A stretch of DNA of 64,000 nucleotides from the IMG/VR virus record IMGVR_UViG_3300032325_000466, positions 124,001-188,000 of that record; one strand, 5' to 3'. Under the pieces are notes generated by a model, which was given only the letters and a program-made list of their open reading frames with translations, was not told the origin of the DNA and ran no database searches. Below, piece after piece: positions 7,399 to 42,642 of the stretch; position 1 is the stretch's first letter, and each line of letters starts with the position of its first letter. The position numbers and the translations under genes were made by a program. The stretch comes from a virus.

Positions 7399-7406
7399 GA
7401 TAAATA
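7399..7406 (+). promoter_or_regulatory. T4-type late promoter box (GATAAATA)
   Basis: GATAAATA 22 nt upstream of the virion gene at 7429, leaving room for a ribosome site (TCGGGA). Confidence 0.65.
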
Positions 7407-7428: not shown

Positions 7429-7959
7429 ATGGCACAAGAAATTATTAATATTGGCGCGCAAGCGAATGACGGTGAAGGTGACCCCCTACGCACGGCCTTT
7501 ACTAAAGTAAATAACAACTTTACTCAGTTATTTGCTACTGCATATAATACTGCTGAAGTAATCACTTACGGGAATACTGCTCAAGAGATTTTTAGTATCT
7601 CTGCAAATGCTTTTACTCAAGGCATATTTCAAATTAACTCAGTTGCCGCTAATACATCAGATAGTCAAAACATCACTATAACTGCTGCTATTAAAGATGA
7701 CCAAACAGGAGTAAAATACACTGGCCACAGCGCACTATTTAATGGTAATGCTATAACTCAATACAGCATGATAGTAGCAGATAGTAATGTAATACTGTTA
7801 GTTAATCCCTTTATAACAGGTCAAATGATCAACTTTATAAACTATCAAGTAACTTATAATAATGCAGTTCCTGGAATGAGTTTAGCACTAAATCAATCTC
7901 CTACAAATGTTCTAGGAACAGAATATCTACAACCTATTACTACTCAGCAGGCGTCATGA
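7429..7959 (+). CDS. Virion structural / tail-fibre-type protein (176 aa)
   Basis: The N terminus carries a motif typical of phage fibre and appendage proteins: NDGEGDPLRTAFTKVNNNF (about residues 14-32). The rest is rich in N, T, I and A with predicted beta strands, as in fibre or decoration domains. It has its own late box. It overlaps (ATGA) the first capsid-targeting-like gene. The exact location in the virion is unknown. Confidence 0.7.
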   Translation: MAQEIINIGAQANDGEGDPLRTAFTKVNNNFTQLFATAYNTAEVITYGNTAQEIFSISANAFTQGIFQINSVAANTSDSQNITITAAIKDDQTGVKYTGHSALFNGNAITQYSMIVADSNVILLVNPFITGQMINFINYQVTYNNAVPGMSLALNQSPTNVLGTEYLQPITTQQAS

Positions 7960-8330
7960 GAGCTAAAGAGTTTATAACTGAACAAAACAAGTTACCTGAT
8001 CGAATTACCAATCCATTACCTGCTACTTGGGTAATACCAGAGTTACAAAATCAAAATGCATATTTACAATATAGATTTTCTGTGGCATTGGCCGGTGCAC
8101 GAGCGGCTCGCAACGGCGATATACCTAAAATAGATAAAGATACGGTTTGGGGAGAAAATCAAATCGTATCAGGCTACATGAATCCAGATATAGAAGAAGA
8201 TATTGACTTTGCTTTAGGTGAAATGGGCCTTAAAGGTAAATTATTAGTCACTAGTAAAGAAAGTGAAGAAACAAGTGATACCGATATCCACAGTCCTTTA
8301 AATCCTTTTGCGGGATACAAAAGAAAATGA
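7956..8330 (+). CDS. Putative capsid-internal protein with MRAxEFITE leader (124 aa)
   Basis: Starts MRAKEFITEQ. The leader resembles the capsid-targeting sequences of T4 internal proteins (MKT-x-x-EFI-x-E), and I-T-E fits the I/L-x-E cleavage rule of the T4 prohead protease. The mature part would be about 115 aa, mixed helical, ending in NPFAGYKRK. The next gene has the same leader and the same F-x-GYK-[RK]-K end. I infer packaging in the head and possible injection into the host. Confidence 0.6.
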   Translation: MRAKEFITEQNKLPDRITNPLPATWVIPELQNQNAYLQYRFSVALAGARAARNGDIPKIDKDTVWGENQIVSGYMNPDIEEDIDFALGEMGLKGKLLVTSKESEETSDTDIHSPLNPFAGYKRK

Positions 8331-8704
8331 GAGCCAGTGAATTTATAACTGAAGCTAAGATGGGTAAAATATCCAAACATCAACAACAACCTACCCGCGG
8401 GTTAAATATTTTTACAAAGAAAATGGATACTTATGATAAGCTATATGATTTAAATCGTTTAATGATGGCTGTCGCAAGTAGCGATGGTATAAACCCAATA
8501 GAAATGCCTGCTGAAAGTTGGGTAGGTAAACACAACACGGCACATGCTTACACTAAAGAAGAACAAGCTATGCTTAATATGGCATATAAAGCGGCTGGCT
8601 TAGAGTATATAGATTTAAATAATGGTGATTTAGATAGCGAAGAACTATCTGATACAAATACTCAAAGTATAGTAAAACCATTTAAAGGCTATAAGAAAAA
8701 ATAA
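8327..8704 (+). CDS. Putative capsid-internal protein, paralogue (125 aa)
   Basis: Starts MRASEFITEAK, giving an I-T-E/A cleavage site at residues 7-10, and ends PFKGYKKK. Coupled by ATGA to the upstream paralogue. Both have a related middle: the upstream copy has W-G-E-N-Q-I-V-S-G-Y and this one has W-V-G-K-H-N-T-A-H-A-Y at similar positions. It is likely a tandem duplicate that has diverged. Confidence 0.6.
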   Translation: MRASEFITEAKMGKISKHQQQPTRGLNIFTKKMDTYDKLYDLNRLMMAVASSDGINPIEMPAESWVGKHNTAHAYTKEEQAMLNMAYKAAGLEYIDLNNGDLDSEELSDTNTQSIVKPFKGYKKK

Positions 8705-11582: not shown

Positions 11583-14500
11583 ATGCCAAAGAATAACTCT
11601 TCAATCAACAATTCGCTATTTGACCTACTAAAAGGCAGGGGATATTCTCCCACAATGCTTAGTACCGCGGGTAAAGAAATACCTACCCCTGATGAAGCTG
11701 AAGTATTTCAGTTTAATTTTGTAAAAGATGGGGAAGATTATGGTAAAGTAACCCTAACAATAGATGATTCCAGTAACCTGATAGTGTATTATAGCGACGA
11801 TGTTGCTGACAGTGAAAAAGGTAATGGATCAACTTATGATTGGGATGATTTTATTGACAAAGTAAAAGACTTTAAGAAATCCAAAAAAACATCCAAATTG
11901 AAAGAAGAAGATGATGATGATGAGGACTTTAAAAGTGAAGGTGGTGATTTATCTTGGTATGGTTTATTAAATCAATTAAAGCGTTTCGCACAAAGATATC
12001 AACTAAGCTTTGAACTTAGAAACACAGACAATCTAAAGTCTGATATGGCCAAAAGAGATTATATGAAGAAACAAGACCAAATTTCAGAAAGCAAAAACCA
12101 TAGTATGGCGGAAGGTTACTCACTAAAGAAAACTAATGTTGAAAAAACATTTGATCCAGGTGATCCTGATGAATACACACAAGATGTCAATACAACATAT
12201 ACTGATTACGAAATTATCAACAATAAGACAGGTCAAGTAGTTGGAACTGCTAGTTGGACTACTAATGATTTTATGGGCCCAGGAGCACTAAAGATTACTA
12301 TGAAGAATGGTGCTACTAGATGGTTAGATATTTGGGAACGAGAAAAGGGTAATCCACAAACAGCATTCAATCGTTTTGTTAAAGATCCCAAAACTGCTAA
12401 GAAGTATAAAGAACAAGATAATAAAGGTGTAACAGAAATGGACAATCGTACCCCAAGTGGTGATCGCAGAGAACAGCGTGCCAATAGCCCAGAAGAAAAA
12501 GCAAAGCGTGAAAAAGAACAACAAGCAAATCTAAAAAAAGTAAGTCCAAAAATGCGCGAAAAATTACGCTTACCTGAACCTAAAGAAGATATGGCAGAAG
12601 GCACTGAAAGTATTCTTGCTCGTGGCACAGAGGTAACTGTTCCACACAGAGGCAAAATGGTGCCAGGCAAAATTCTTAGATATGTTGCTGGTAAAGGTGG
12701 CTATTCAGATGCTTATGTAGTTGATATTGGTGAGTATGAGTCCCTGACTGTACCAACATTTAATGTTAAAACTCAAGTTATGGCGGAAGCCAGCGGTGAT
12801 CAAGTTAAAAAAGTGTTTAAGAAAAATGGTAAGCCAGTAGGTGAAGTTGGTATTGATCCAGAAGCAAGTCCGGGCGTTGGTCAATGGTATATGAAGTGCT
12901 ATCAATACAAAATAGATAATAGTGGCTATGACTCATACGAAGAAGCTGTAGAAGAATTAAAGTATTGTATGAAGCAAGGTATGGTGGAAGCACGAAATCC
13001 AGAAGACTTCATCAAGGATATTAAAAATATTCCCTTACGCCAACGCCAACGAATTGGCAAGTCATTAATCAAACATGCTGAGGAAGCAGGATTAAGGCCT
13101 GAAACAATAAAAGTGGGTTATAGTGAAACAACTGGGGTTTATCAGGTCACCGGTCTAGCCATGAAACACGGTGCGAAATACGACTGGAGATACAAGTCTG
13201 ACCCGGCTACTAATAAAATGGTCTCTCTTGATGCCATGCAATCTGATACTGAGTATGCCCCTGATAAATTTATGCCAATCGTATTTGATAAGTTAGATGA
13301 GCAAGATATGGTGAAAGGCACTGAGGACTCAACTCAAGTATTAAGCGATATTGTTGCTAATGACGATTTTGATGCATTGTATGACTTAATGTCGTCTAAT
13401 ACTGAAGCAGGTAAAATTGTTCAACGAATGTATAACGATGTTGCTGGTGAAGAAGGCTTACATCCAGATGATGATTTTGAACAGATTCTAAACCGTGTGT
13501 TTGATCACCTGTCACAAGATTATGGTCAGCAAGGTATGGAGGAAGGCTTAGGCAAAGATATCAAGCGTTTGGCTACAGGCAAAGATGTTAAAAGTCGTGC
13601 TGGACAAGAAATAGCCAAGTCACAAGATGCCAGTATGAAGGGCGATACTAAAACTTCTAAAAAGCATTTTGACCGCTATGATAAACTAGATAAGTTAGCA
13701 AACAAAGGTATGGCGGAAGGCTGGAATAAGGGACGCCGCGCCGCAGATGTGGATCGGGATGACAATAAAGACCCAGACGATTCATTAGATCAACTCATTG
13801 ATCTGCAAGGACAAAGGGATTGGTTTGCTAAAATGAGTAAGCCTAAGAATATGAGAAACGGCCGCCAGAAGCCAGCTAAGGATGCTATAAAAAGGTTACC
13901 AGTGGCGGAAGGAGCTATAAAGAAATTATCAAAGGGCGCAAAGGTGTATCACACACTTCATGGTACTGGTACTGTTATTGACTTCTCAACTGGTCCTGCT
14001 GCATCTCATTGGGTAGATGTGAAATTTATCAAAGACGGAAACAAAGGCAAGCCTACTAGGGTTGATCGTAAGCAACTTAAGTTAGCAAAAGTTGAAAGTA
14101 TGGCCGAAGGCTATTATGGTGATGATCGTGGTGATTATAGAAAAACTGCTAGGGAAGCAAATGCTGCATCTAGGTTGGCAAAATCATCAAAAACTCATGC
14201 TGAGGCCGCCCGCCTACATAATTTAGCAGCAACATATGCGCTATCAGCAGGCCAAGATCAGTCAGTAATACGCGACCATCAGATGGCAGCACATGAACAT
14301 AATCAGGCTGCAAAAAAATATAAGAAAGGTATGGCGGAAGGCTACACTGTAACTCGTGGAATTGATACAGAAAGATATCAAGAACGCCCGGGATTGGAAG
14401 GTCCCTTTGCTACCAAAAGCGGTAAAGTTGTATACTATGACAAGCGTGAAGGAAAATACTACGATCCCGATACTGATATGTATATTGAATATGATGATTG

Positions 14501-15662
14501 GCAAGCTATGAATGAGCAAGATATGGCAGAAAGTAATCAACAAGTCAATGAAAGTTACTACCCAATGGGCAAACAAGGTAGCTATAGTGATGCTGTACCA
14601 ACAACTAAAATCATTATTCAGCATAGCCGCAGAATAGAAGAAGGTGAGCAGCGTTATCGTAATATCGCTAAAATCTTTGTAGAAAACAGTGAAGGTGAGC
14701 GTTTTGCGGTACCAACTAATAAGCCAGGACTAGCCCGCGTATATGCCCGTCATATAGCAGAGGGTGGCACACCTTATGATGAGCGTGGCCGTCATATTAC
14801 TTCATTAGTAGAAGAATATTCTAAAATGTCTGGCTTTATGCGTGCCACAAGAGGCAAGCAGTTTAATGAGTCAGCACAGCAATTAGTAACCGAAGCTGTA
14901 AATTATTATCAAAGTTTGCGTGAAAGTTTAAGCAAGATGACAGGTCATCGTGGCTATTCAGCATACTTTGAAAGTTGGACACCTTCACTAATGGAAGATG
15001 GAGAAGAACAAGAAACCAATCTTAACGAACTATTCGTACAAGAAACCCTCGACCCCAGAATTGAAAGTGTAATGCCAATCTTAGGTAAGCTACAAAGAAA
15101 ATTGGGCACCATAAAAGAAGTTGATGCACTAGCAGAATGGGCTGATAATATTATTGAAGGTGATGGCGGACAAGAGGCTCTTACCCCACAAGGTATTCCT
15201 GAAGCTGCTGGTCCAGAAACTTTAGCTCATAATATAAGAACCGATCGTAGTAATCTAAAAGCATTTGACTTAGAAGAAACTACTGGTGTAACTGACTATA
15301 ACCCAAAATCTCAGGGTGGTACTAGAGCAGAACTTCTTCGCAAATATGCTAACACTAAAAAGCCAAAAGATGCCGAAGCTGCAAGGCGTGCAGGTGCTAG
15401 CCAGTCAGAATTAAAAGCTGCGGCCGATTCTACTGAAGAAATACATGAAGGTGAGCATGGTCTAGATGAAAACCTAGATGCTAACCAAATTAGTGCAGGA
15501 CAATTGGGCCCTACAGAAAAAGCCAAGTCTATTAGTCCAGTATTAGGTGCTCAACCCAAACAGCATCCTTTTAAAGGCAAGTTAGTTGGTGCTGAAGAAA
15601 GCGTCAATGAAAGTGAAAATGAATTGGCTAGAATTTTACAAATGGTCAAGCATAAACGATAA
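11583..15662 (+). CDS. Putative capsid-internal polyprotein with repeated MAEG sites (1359 aa)
   Basis: A very long, charged, Met/Glu/Lys-rich late gene directly after terminase. The motif [M/V/I]-x-E-[G/A/S] recurs with E at residues 177, 339, 402, 469, 654, 712, 776, 842, 919, 983 and 1060, plus a degenerate MVKG at 576. Most intervals are 58-77 residues. The sequences between sites differ and look like separate small domains. Residues 777-842 resemble an SH3-like barrel (KGAKVYHTLHGTGTV), 843-919 are Ala/His-rich helices, and 920-983 hold a KVVYYDKREGKYYD beta hairpin. T4 gp21 protease cuts after I/L-x-E, so these look like processing sites. I infer a prohead-core or injected polyprotein. 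No enzyme motif is seen. Confidence 0.7.
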   Translation: MPKNNSSINNSLFDLLKGRGYSPTMLSTAGKEIPTPDEAEVFQFNFVKDGEDYGKVTLTIDDSSNLIVYYSDDVADSEKGNGSTYDWDDFIDKVKDFKKSKKTSKLKEEDDDDEDFKSEGGDLSWYGLLNQLKRFAQRYQLSFELRNTDNLKSDMAKRDYMKKQDQISESKNHSMAEGYSLKKTNVEKTFDPGDPDEYTQDVNTTYTDYEIINNKTGQVVGTASWTTNDFMGPGALKITMKNGATRWLDIWEREKGNPQTAFNRFVKDPKTAKKYKEQDNKGVTEMDNRTPSGDRREQRANSPEEKAKREKEQQANLKKVSPKMREKLRLPEPKEDMAEGTESILARGTEVTVPHRGKMVPGKILRYVAGKGGYSDAYVVDIGEYESLTVPTFNVKTQVMAEASGDQVKKVFKKNGKPVGEVGIDPEASPGVGQWYMKCYQYKIDNSGYDSYEEAVEELKYCMKQGMVEARNPEDFIKDIKNIPLRQRQRIGKSLIKHAEEAGLRPETIKVGYSETTGVYQVTGLAMKHGAKYDWRYKSDPATNKMVSLDAMQSDTEYAPDKFMPIVFDKLDEQDMVKGTEDSTQVLSDIVANDDFDALYDLMSSNTEAGKIVQRMYNDVAGEEGLHPDDDFEQILNRVFDHLSQDYGQQGMEEGLGKDIKRLATGKDVKSRAGQEIAKSQDASMKGDTKTSKKHFDRYDKLDKLANKGMAEGWNKGRRAADVDRDDNKDPDDSLDQLIDLQGQRDWFAKMSKPKNMRNGRQKPAKDAIKRLPVAEGAIKKLSKGAKVYHTLHGTGTVIDFSTGPAASHWVDVKFIKDGNKGKPTRVDRKQLKLAKVESMAEGYYGDDRGDYRKTAREANAASRLAKSSKTHAEAARLHNLAATYALSAGQDQSVIRDHQMAAHEHNQAAKKYKKGMAEGYTVTRGIDTERYQERPGLEGPFATKSGKVVYYDKREGKYYDPDTDMYIEYDDWQAMNEQDMAESNQQVNESYYPMGKQGSYSDAVPTTKIIIQHSRRIEEGEQRYRNIAKIFVENSEGERFAVPTNKPGLARVYARHIAEGGTPYDERGRHITSLVEEYSKMSGFMRATRGKQFNESAQQLVTEAVNYYQSLRESLSKMTGHRGYSAYFESWTPSLMEDGEEQETNLNELFVQETLDPRIESVMPILGKLQRKLGTIKEVDALAEWADNIIEGDGGQEALTPQGIPEAAGPETLAHNIRTDRSNLKAFDLEETTGVTDYNPKSQGGTRAELLRKYANTKKPKDAEAARRAGASQSELKAAADSTEEIHEGEHGLDENLDANQISAGQLGPTEKAKSISPVLGAQPKQHPFKGKLVGAEESVNESENELARILQMVKHKR
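12105..14532 (+). repeat. Dispersed 16-bp DNA repeat at module junctions (ATGGCGGAAGGCT type)
   Basis: Near-identical DNA encodes the MAEG sites at 12105, 12591, 12780, 13710, 14100, 14331 and 14523, with looser copies at 12981, 13536 and 13902. GGTATGGCGGAAGGCT is exact at 13708 and 14329. Identity at the junctions, with unrelated DNA between them, suggests module shuffling by recombination. Confidence 0.7.
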
Positions 15663-37723: not shown

Positions 37724-37963
37724 ATGCAAAAACAAACTCGCAGCCTATTAGAAGAACTAGAAGCTATCGGCAACAATCGTGATACTACTCACTTGATTGA
37801 AAGTCGTGGGCATAATATCATTACCAGTGCGATTAATCTCATAGAAATGATTAATCGTCATTATTCCCCTGAACAAGCGGCTATTCTAGAGAGAAAATTG
37901 TTAGGTGCTATAAAAAGTAGAGACCAAACTAAGTTTTCGAAATCTCTAAAGAAAAAGCCATGA
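37724..37963 (+). CDS. Small helical late protein (79 aa)
   Basis: Begins MQKQTRSLLEELEAI, has ESRGHNIITSAINLIEMI and ends with a Lys-rich tail (FSKSLKKKP). A late promoter precedes it and its stop overlaps the next start (ATGA). It probably belongs to head assembly or DNA packaging by context. Function unknown. Confidence 0.6.
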   Translation: MQKQTRSLLEELEAIGNNRDTTHLIESRGHNIITSAINLIEMINRHYSPEQAAILERKLLGAIKSRDQTKFSKSLKKKP

Positions 37964-38898
37964 AAATAAACGAATTCAACGATAAAAAAAGAATAGATGA
38001 GCTAGACCTAGGTAACTTAATGAATAAATTGAGGGGTCGTCCCACAATGACTTCGGCCGATAAGAGGGCCAAAGATATCTTTATAAAAGGCTTCTTAAGT
38101 AAAGTAGTAGGTGGTTTGGATAGCGCAATAAAAAGCACCTTAGTATCAACTACTGCAACAGCACCTGCAACAGCACCTGCAACAGCCTCGCCCGCTCCCG
38201 GTGCAAATGCATTTGGTCAAATGACTACCCAATTACAACCCAAAGCGGCGCCAAAAACATCAAGTACCGGCGGAACTACACAACAAACTCCTACCGGGCA
38301 AACTCATACTGCCAAAGCAGCACCAATAAAACCTGTACCCTCACCCGGTGCGAATGCATTTGGTCAAATGACCACCCAATTACAACCCAAAAATAAGGCG
38401 CCTCTACCTATAAAATCAAGCACTGGTGGAAACATACAAAAAACTAGAACCGGATTAAAGCATACCTTTGAGGACGATCAATATAGTAAATTAAATGCAA
38501 TTTTTGAAGGAATAATTAGTTTAGATGAAGTCTCTACTCAACAAAGCATTAGTCAATATGTAATGAATTTTACTAATAAATATTTAGGCGATAACCCAAA
38601 TTTTAAACCATACCAAGCCAATATTCAGCAATTAGCACAAAGAGTAGAAAAAGAGTACTCTAGAGATCGAGGAAATAAGGCTCTTACTGATTTGGCAAAT
38701 TTAGTTTATTCTATGGCACAGACTGTGCCTCGTGATTCTACTAGTTCTAACACTACAAGCACTGTAACAAATCAACCGCAAGCGCAAACTCCTCAAGCAT
38801 TACAAGCTAATCAAACACTTAAAAATTTATTGGCTAATGCCACTGTACAACAAAAAGCACAAATTATACAATTTTTAAACAAAGCAAACAATCCATGA
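37960..38898 (+). CDS. Putative head-associated protein with duplicated PGANAFGQM block (312 aa)
   Basis: Starts MKINEFNDKKRIDEL, containing an I-D-E that could be a prohead-protease site. A low-complexity A/P/T/Q region (about 60-170) holds two copies of PGANAFGQMTTQLQPK. The C-terminal half is helical. Late transcription and neighbours suggest a scaffold or internal head role; this is inference. Confidence 0.6.
   Translation: MKINEFNDKKRIDELDLGNLMNKLRGRPTMTSADKRAKDIFIKGFLSKVVGGLDSAIKSTLVSTTATAPATAPATASPAPGANAFGQMTTQLQPKAAPKTSSTGGTTQQTPTGQTHTAKAAPIKPVPSPGANAFGQMTTQLQPKNKAPLPIKSSTGGNIQKTRTGLKHTFEDDQYSKLNAIFEGIISLDEVSTQQSISQYVMNFTNKYLGDNPNFKPYQANIQQLAQRVEKEYSRDRGNKALTDLANLVYSMAQTVPRDSTSSNTTSTVTNQPQAQTPQALQANQTLKNLLANATVQQKAQIIQFLNKANNP
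38196..38392 (+). repeat. Duplicated 48-bp coding block
   Basis: CCCGGTGCAAATGCATTTGG and following bases at about 38198 recur at about 38345 with two or three silent changes, each encoding PGANAFGQMTTQLQPK. A shorter ACAGCACCTGCA tandem lies just upstream. Confidence 0.8.
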
Positions 38899-42312: not shown

Positions 42313-42642
42313 ATGCGTTTATACGAATTCGAAAGTAGTCCCTTGGATGTTAGGCTAGTAGCTACTACTGCTCAACTGAAAAGTGATATTGACTCTAACA
42401 AGAAAAAGGGCGATTGGACTACTGAAGAACTATTGCAATTCTACAAGAACAATGATATAATTGTAGATAAGTCAGATTTATACGATATGATTAAAAGACC
42501 GCCCCTGAATAAGTACATTAGTAACATTCAGGGTGATAAGGTAATTTTTAAAGGGCAAGCGGATGATGCAGTAGCGCCTGATGAAAAAGATAAAAATCAA
42601 GAAATCGTAAAGTCAATGGCTAACAAAGCAATGAAGAATTAA
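42313..42642 (+). CDS. Hypothetical late protein with MRLYEF leader (109 aa)
   Basis: ATG one base after the upstream TAA. Starts MRLYEFESS, similar to the M-R/K-x-x-EF leaders seen at 7956, 8327 and 37960. Contains LQFYKNNDIIVDKSDLYDMI and YISNIQGDKVIFKGQ. Stop overlaps the next start. A head-associated role is possible. Confidence 0.6.
   Translation: MRLYEFESSPLDVRLVATTAQLKSDIDSNKKKGDWTTEELLQFYKNNDIIVDKSDLYDMIKRPPLNKYISNIQGDKVIFKGQADDAVAPDEKDKNQEIVKSMANKAMKN

What the first reader, a model, noticed from the sequence alone, without database searches (positions are those of the whole stretch)
7956..8704. Tandem genes with T4-like capsid-targeting leaders (MRAKEFITE, MRASEFITE)
Seen: two coupled genes share the nine-residue leader MRAxEFITE and an F-x-GYK-[RK]-K end but differ in between. 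Known: T4 internal proteins carry an N-terminal capsid-targeting peptide of the form MKT-x-x-EFI-x-E that gp21 removes. Inferred: these are head-packaged, probably host-directed proteins. Related M-R/K-x-x-EF starts occur at 37960 and 42313.
Basis: partly seen in the sequence, partly recalled or inferred. Interest (0 to 1): 0.72.

Follow-up and report, generated by a model that had tools for sequence, protein, structure and literature searches.

The report
Capsid-entry tags on phage proteins
Two neighbouring genes of an uncultured T4-like phage begin with a nine-residue tag that uncultured phages also attach to some thirty unrelated proteins, and that very probably carries those proteins into the phage head before the head protease removes it.

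Summary
ORFs 7956-8330 and 8327-8704 start MRAKEFITE and MRASEFITE and end F-x-GYK-[RK]-K. They are distant paralogues, not unrelated in between. The leader is kept in 66 of 67 distinct P1 and 75 of 75 distinct P2 relatives; the three P2 proteins that lose E9 have LSE, ITE or IIE ending at residue 13 instead. In IMG/VR the leader sits on 30 further unrelated bodies, including ADP-ribosyltransferases; a residue-swapped control is rare. The phage encodes a gp21-type head protease. Its capsid protein's probable cut site (LLAE|SSAGTTTAGNIA) resembles the sequence after some leaders (MRANEFIKE|TASAGATTSGNIA). A leader-bearing protein is homologous to a virion protein of relative PA5oct annotated as MS-detected. 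I conclude this is a lineage-specific form of the T4 capsid-targeting sequence: new form, known kind. Packaging and cleavage are inferred, not shown. 'Probably host-directed' is not supported for this pair: P1 and P2 are almost as conserved as terminase, which suits a core internal head protein. The 1359-aa gene after the terminase looks like a cargo polyprotein.

The parts
7399..7406 (+). GATAAATA, late-promoter-like motif 22 nt before ORF 7429
   Evidence: 12 of 29 copies in the record have an ORF start 23-45 nt after the first base, expected 0.3; position
7429..7959 (+). upstream coupled gene, baseplate/tail-fibre-connector-like
   Evidence: phrog_677 E 2.6e-9; ATGA overlap with P1
7956..7982 (+). 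leader 1, MRAKEFITE, probable cut after E9
7956..8330 (+). P1, 124 aa, leader-bearing protein
   Evidence: relatives; alignment A1
8298..8327 (+). conserved C-terminal tail of P1 (LNPFAGYKRK)
   Evidence: 65 of 67 distinct relatives have F-x-G-[YF] in the last 10 residues
8327..8353 (+). leader 2, MRASEFITE, probable cut after E9
8327..8704 (+). P2, 125 aa, leader-bearing paralogue of P1
   Evidence: relatives; alignment A2; homology
8672..8701 (+). conserved C-terminal tail of P2 (VKPFKGYKKK)
   Evidence: 73 of 75 distinct relatives have F-x-G-[YF] in the last 10 residues
11583..15662 (+). 1359-aa probable cargo polyprotein with 7 MAEG/MVEA-type sites; core homologous to PA5oct gp278
37960..38898 (+). 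protein starting MKINEF, weaker leader-like start
   Evidence: positional counterpart of PA5oct gp258
42313..42642 (+). 109-aa protein starting MRLYEF, weaker leader-like start
   Evidence: positional counterpart of PA5oct gp246

Best explanation
MRAxEF[I/V]xE is this phage lineage's capsid-targeting sequence. Inferred: residues 1-9 bind the scaffold core of the growing prohead and draw the protein inside; the phage's own gp21-type protease (G000:65528-66175) then cuts after E9 ([ILV]-x-E|), freeing the mature protein in the head, where it lies with the DNA and may leave with it. P1 and P2 are a coupled pair of paralogous internal head proteins, probably made late from a GATAAATA promoter. Shown by sequence: the leader, its conservation, its use on many unrelated bodies, the movable [LI]xE, the protease and scaffold genes, the promoter motif. 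Inferred: packaging, cleavage, delivery. For P1 and P2 themselves a conserved head or DNA-ejection role is more likely than host takeover or anti-defence.
For: Leader in 66 of 67 and 75 of 75 distinct relatives; the three P2 proteins without E9 have LSE, ITE or IIE ending at residue 13. Synonymous codon variation. 125 of 143 DNA matches are MRA starts with at most 30 open codons upstream, in 31 body clusters, 30 of them not P1/P2, against a swapped-residue control with 23 matches in the whole collection, 4 of them passing the same start and length test. 37 matches of a looser pattern in 15 P1/P2 records, 0 for the reversed pattern. Head protease phrog_207 E 2.1e-60, capsid protein, portal. Post-site likeness of capsid proteins and leader proteins. 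L232 leader protein matches PA5oct gp279, annotated ESI-MS/MS, E 3e-8. Looser leaders in 7 of 93 MS-detected and 4 of 352 other PA5oct CDS, P 0.002 (exploratory). Late-type motif. T4 leader MKTYQEFIAE verified twice in T4; its residues 8 and 10 govern processing (review section), matching I7 and E9 here.
Against: No virion or cleavage data for any MRAxEF protein. The T4 leader has 10 residues and a Tyr at position 4 that matters for targeting; the form here has 9 and no such Tyr. PA5oct, the relative with MS annotation, lacks the 9-mer pattern, and the strict M[KR]xxEF test there is not significant (1 of 93 against 0 of 352, P 0.21). Mature P1 is acidic (pI 4.9) and P2 8.1. P1 homologues in L075-L078 have no leader but are fused to other domains. 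The post-site regex and the relaxed PA5oct pattern were chosen after seeing data.
Confidence: 0.8

Rival explanations
1. The leader is a docking peptide that targets proteins to the scaffold or capsid interior but is not removed; E9 is part of the binding motif.
For: Leader residues R2, A3, F6 are as conserved as E9; no cleavage data exist.
Against: In three P2 proteins E9 is gone and a hydrophobic-x-E triplet ends at residue 13, which suits a protease site. Sequence after some leaders resembles the capsid protein after its probable cut. A gp21-type protease is encoded.
Confidence: 0.1
2. P1 and P2 are tail or baseplate assembly proteins, co-transcribed with the tail-fibre-connector-like gene 7429-7959, and the leader is a generic N-terminal contact.
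For: Coupled to ORF 7429-7959 (phrog_677); gene order kept in most loci.
Against: The same leader is on ADP-ribosyltransferases and about 30 other unrelated bodies, and in G004/G005 the P1 domain is fused to metalloprotease-like and other domains, not to tail proteins.
Confidence: 0.07
3. The conserved start reflects an RNA-level or translation-initiation signal.
For: It lies at the start codons of coupled genes.
Against: Synonymous codons vary at A3, E5, F6, I7 and E9 while the residues stay; 35 and 36 distinct leader DNAs in the two families.
Confidence: 0.01

Closest known systems
Bacteriophage T4 capsid-targeting sequence (CTS) of the internal proteins, removed by gp21
   Same: Short N-terminal leader ending E-F-I-x-E on otherwise unrelated proteins; hydrophobic-x-E cut site; gp21-type protease, scaffold and T4-type capsid genes in the phage.
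   Different: Nine residues MRAxEFIxE against ten in T4 (MKTYQEFIAE); no Tyr4; in uncultured PA5oct-like and other phages; P1 and P2 are conserved, not diverse, and not basic as a pair.
T4 Alt and other head-packaged ADP-ribosyltransferases
   Same: Leader-bearing ADP-ribosyltransferases occur: PF18760 in G001, which also has P1/P2, and PF03496 in L229.
   Different: P1 and P2 themselves are not enzymes of this kind; no family match.
Polyvalent proteins of phages and conjugative elements (PMC5512222, passages seen)
   Same: Multi-domain proteins with exchangeable domains thought to be packaged and delivered; ART-PolyVal domain shared.
   Different: Here many domains are single proteins with one shared short leader, and the large protein 11583-15662 carries repeated protease-like sites.
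Propeptide-bearing inner-head proteins of giant phages phiKZ, 201phi2-1 and SPN3US (passages of PMC9026906)
   Same: Head-internal proteins cut after a glutamate by a gp21-related protease.
   Different: As I recall those propeptides are long and not one shared short leader; not tested here.

Membership tests
T4-type capsid-targeted internal proteins | N-terminal leader of about 10-19 residues ending hydrophobic-x-E | tested here: met
   MRAKEFITE and MRASEFITE; kept in 66 of 67 and 75 of 75 distinct relatives
T4-type capsid-targeted internal proteins | Targeting residues of the T4 leader (Tyr4 and Phe7 of MKTYQEFIAE) | tested here: inconclusive
   Phe kept; Tyr4 has no counterpart and the leader is one residue shorter
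T4-type capsid-targeted internal proteins | Same leader on unrelated mature proteins | tested here: met
   30 body clusters besides P1/P2
T4-type capsid-targeted internal proteins | Phage encodes a gp21-type prohead protease and scaffold | tested here: met
   phrog_207 E 2.1e-60; scaffold-position protein phrog_10922 (no function name) homologous to PA5oct gene in the same place
T4-type capsid-targeted internal proteins | Protein found inside virions | not testable with these tools
   No proteome of this phage; indirect: L232 leader protein matches PA5oct gp279, annotated ESI-MS/MS
T4-type capsid-targeted internal proteins | Leader removed by the prohead protease | not testable with these tools
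   Sequence support only: movable [LI]xE, likeness to capsid protein site
T4-type capsid-targeted internal proteins | Small basic mature protein | tested here: not met
   Mature P1 pI 4.9, P2 8.1; 12.8 and 13.1 kDa. This is typical of T4 internal proteins, not strictly defining
T4-type capsid-targeted internal proteins | Diverse, fast-changing mature part | tested here: not met
   Median identity to the window 80% and 79% against TerL 85%
T4-type capsid-targeted internal proteins | Late expression | tested here: inconclusive
   GATAAATA before the operon; motif enriched before ORFs. No transcript data
Polyvalent proteins (ORF 11583-15662) | Several recognisable enzymatic or effector domains in one chain | tested here: inconclusive
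   Pfam found no domain above cut-off in the window protein; relatives carry different inserted segments

The most novel reading that the evidence does not exclude
Uncultured T4-like phages run a general head-loading system: one portable nine-residue leader plus a protease-cut cargo polyprotein behind the terminase (window 11583-15662). With these they swap, package and inject an exchangeable set of proteins, including ADP-ribosyltransferases, ParB-like and metalloprotease-like modules, and domains move between stand-alone leader proteins and fusions at [LI]xE boundaries.
Probability: 0.5. Interest if true: 0.8.

Novelty: new variant of a known kind. Interest (0 to 1): 0.64.

Why it matters
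If true, the nine-residue leader is a sequence tag that marks head-packaged, probably injected proteins of environmental phages directly in metagenomes, most of them of unknown function. That would make the head cargo of uncultured phages searchable and testable, and would give a second natural capsid-targeting tag beside that of T4. The claim can be tested by re-reading existing PA5oct spectra or with one recombinant protease.

Tried and rejected
Structure: AlphaFold2 on the family alignments gave mean pLDDT 64.3 for P1 and 49.0 for P2. Foldseek of the P1 model against PDB had no match with E at or below 0.001. No fold claim is made; the P2 model was not searched.

Pfam and PHROGs have no family for P1 or P2, and tblastn at E up to 1 found neither in 50,697 phage records. 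Small terminase was considered for P1/P2 because of their place before TerL; the ORF at G000:188227 matches the PA5oct gene just upstream of the terminase region, so I dropped it (that this gene is the small terminase is recalled, not shown).

RNA-level conservation was rejected by codon variation. The T4 late promoter TATAAATA is not enriched before ORFs here (1 of 27, expected 0.3); GATAAATA is.

A looser pattern (T4-type spacing, EF or EY) in eight named phages (T4, PA5oct, Phosso, Atu_ph07, P-SSM2, HTVC008M, S-PM2, GAP32) gave 16 matches and 2 control matches, many not in frame. A search of the same eight for one leader protein found nothing. So I do not claim the MRAxEF form for isolates.

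Literature: searches (the last for leader strings) listed no phage paper describing this leader; the 7 papers are unrelated by title. One search was swamped by the word 'benefited'. Only CC0, CC BY and CC BY-SA papers of PMC are held, so this does not show absence from print. Seen: PMC9026906 passages and section 10; PMC3012670 passages; PMC5512222 passages; all others as listings only. The PA5oct proteome paper was not seen; I used the notes 'ESI-MS/MS' in its public record.

Full report
What is there. Window 7956-8704 holds two coupled ORFs of 124 and 125 aa that begin MRAKEFITE and MRASEFITE and end NPFAGYKRK and KPFKGYKKK. The window is bases 124001-188000 of an IMG/VR virus record of 191,027 bases, G000. 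The record encodes a T4-type capsid protein, portal, head maturation protease and terminase. Among annotated phages its TerL is closest to the PA5oct group of Pseudomonas jumbo phages, 50.6% identical over 97% of the query.

The leader is a conserved peptide. A scan for P1 relatives gave 68 distinct loci; one for P2 gave 108 relatives, of which 80 were kept. In the ORFs read from these loci there are 67 distinct P1 and 75 distinct P2 proteins with a start near the expected place; 6 of 130 P1 ORFs and 0 of 135 P2 ORFs had none and were left out. MRAx[ED]F begins 66 of 67 and 75 of 75; E9 is present in 66 of 67 and 72 of 75. Codons for A3, E5, F6, I7 and E9 vary synonymously. The three P2 proteins without E9 read MRAREFVSAVLSE, MRAKEFVTTTITE and MRAKEFVPTTIIE: a hydrophobic-x-E triplet ends four residues later. 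A binding motif alone would not explain this; a protease site would. The one P1 exception (L075/L076) is a fused form, see below.

The two bodies are related. Profile comparison of whole proteins gives E 9.4e-20, but leader and tail carry much of that. Without them the direct score is weak (P 0.0026, probability 4.7%, reversed control P 0.35), yet core-only blastp links P1 to P2 through two intermediates. So the pair is most likely a diverged duplication.

The leader is portable. In the 118 new loci I read 143 matches; 140 open at least 40 codons. Bodies from residue 10 on fall into 34 clusters at E 1e-4: 75 proteins in the P1/P2 cluster, and 33 other clusters. Asking for MRA and at most 30 open codons upstream leaves 125 ORFs in 31 clusters, 30 of them not P1/P2. 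Sensitive profile searches might merge some clusters, so 30 is an upper estimate for this sample; the sample itself is cut short. A control with residues swapped gave 23 matches in the whole collection, of which 4 pass the same length and start test (list). In the 15 uncultured records that carry P1/P2 relatives a looser pattern gives 37 matches and 0 for the reversed pattern. Extra ones that I read include an ART-PolyVal protein (G001, 4.7e-14), a LysM protein (1.1e-13), a GP88 protein (1.7e-29) and several without a Pfam family. Elsewhere there is an ADPrib_exo_Tox protein (L229, 9.5e-13) and a protein with a ParB-like region (L160, PHROG 7.2e-10, Pfam 9.2e-6 just under its cut-off). Kinase-like and metalloprotease-like readings of others are mine by eye or rest on weak matches (E 0.0026 to 0.022).

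Link to virions. The PA5oct record notes 'ESI-MS/MS' on 93 of 445 CDS. The leader protein L232:3889-5232 (MRAKEFILE) matches PA5oct gp279, one of the 93, at 27.5% over 204 residues (E 3e-8). Some PA5oct virion proteins have looser leaders: MKINDIITEG (gp333), VKIKDILVES (gp246), MKILEFNLTE (gp104). The pattern M[KR]xx[ED][FILMV], start codons read as M, is in 7 of 93 noted and 4 of 352 other CDS (odds ratio 7.1, P 0.002). This is exploratory: I relaxed the pattern after seeing N-termini, the noted set includes enzymes such as ribonucleotide reductase, and the strict M[KR]xxEF gives 1 of 93 against 0 of 352. I did not show homology for these two.

Link to the protease. The capsid protein of G000 reads NTKKQLLAE-SSAGTTTAGNIATLN and that of PA5oct NTKRFLVE-NASAGATQAGNIATIN. 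A search of the held loci for this post-site motif found 6 distinct places: the two capsid proteins, PA5oct gp281 (VEE-TASAGASSAGGIA, noted ESI-MS/MS), L159, L227, and L198, whose start MKIREIVE-SATAGATSAGNVA is itself leader-like. L217 reads MRANEFIKE-TASAGATTSGNIA (the regex asked for more residues before the site than it has). The motif was written after I had seen the likeness. That the capsid protein is cut there is inferred by analogy with the T4 capsid protein (recalled).

Fusions. In G004 and G005 the P1 domain is the C-terminal part of a longer protein (487 aa in L076). Upstream lie a region with HELVHAKQ and a shared module, both matched by leader protein L204 (35.7%, 4e-20; 45.5%, 9e-15), and in L076 a region matched by G000's own MNIKEIITE protein at 111024 (30.7%, 1.6e-25). 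The P1 part follows MSLSE-SREGS or LKE-SREGS. So the same domain boundary takes a leader or another module.

Cargo polyprotein. The gene behind TerL (11583-15662, 1359 aa) matches PA5oct gp278, noted ESI-MS/MS, at 29.8% (5.7e-20). Its residues 1 to about 189 and 976-1276 align with relatives in which the two parts are adjacent; about 800 residues in between have no counterpart in the 7 of 16 relatives whose alignments I printed. The insert holds MAEG-type sites: 7 of the searched form in the window protein. Matches were found in 12 of 14 searched records, with open frames of 603-1025 aa. Cleavage there is conjecture.

Expression. GATAAATA occurs 29 times in the record; 12 sites have an ORF start 23-45 nt after the first base, expected 0.3. 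TATAAATA, the T4 form, is not enriched. One site is at 7399, before 7429, P1 and P2.

What P1 and P2 do. They are nearly as conserved as TerL: median identity to the window 80% (126 loci) and 79% (131 loci) against 85% (94 loci), while the three genes before them are at 43-49%. The scans that brought in these loci used P1 and P2 as queries, which favours their likeness; TerL was not selected. This suits a core internal head protein or ejection partner better than a fast-changing anti-defence protein. Mature P1 is acidic and P2 slightly basic. No fold could be assigned.

Known or new. The T4 leader and its removal are established, and the review PMC9026906 (section read) already suggests that it lets T4-like phages load varied proteins. 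I verified the T4 leader in the T4 genome, twice. New here, as far as the searches named in Tried and rejected show, are the MRAxEF form, its spread over some thirty bodies in uncultured phages, the movable cut triplet, and the probable cargo polyprotein. I file it as a new variant of a known kind.

Noticed in passing
window 11583-15662: 1359-aa gene behind TerL: PA5oct gp278 homologue with about 800 inserted residues and repeated MAEG-type sites; relatives are 603-1025 aa with other inserts.
   Followed up: partly
G000:111024-111569 (L008:16024-16569): Protein starting MNIKEIITE whose body matches an internal region of the L076 fusion protein that ends in a P1 domain.
   Followed up: partly
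G000:189411-190037 (L010:2411-3037): Protein starting MKSLKHYIVES, homologous to PA5oct gp282, noted ESI-MS/MS; relatives in other loci start MKTFAQYLVES and similar.
   Followed up: partly
G000:67160-67393 (L006): Small protein MRLLEMFNAAIPG beside the portal, homologous to PA5oct gp333 MKINDIITEGYY, noted ESI-MS/MS.
   Followed up: no
G000, whole record: GATAAATA looks like the late promoter of this phage; the T4 form TATAAATA is not enriched before ORFs.
   Followed up: yes
12 loci of the P1/P2 set: Gene order is P2 then P1 in 12 loci; in L322 a third coupled gene starting MRSREFLPE follows.
   Followed up: no
T4 NC_000866.4:19101-19130, minus: The T4 gene annotated 61.1 (hypothetical) starts MKTFKEFIKE, close to the T4 capsid-targeting leader.
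   Followed up: no
L229:6643-7946, minus: Two adjacent leader genes (MRAKEFITE, MRAKEFIPE); the second is an ADP-ribosyltransferase-family protein.
   Followed up: partly
L232, minus strand: Four leader genes in one 7-kb region, one of them homologous to PA5oct gp279.
   Followed up: partly
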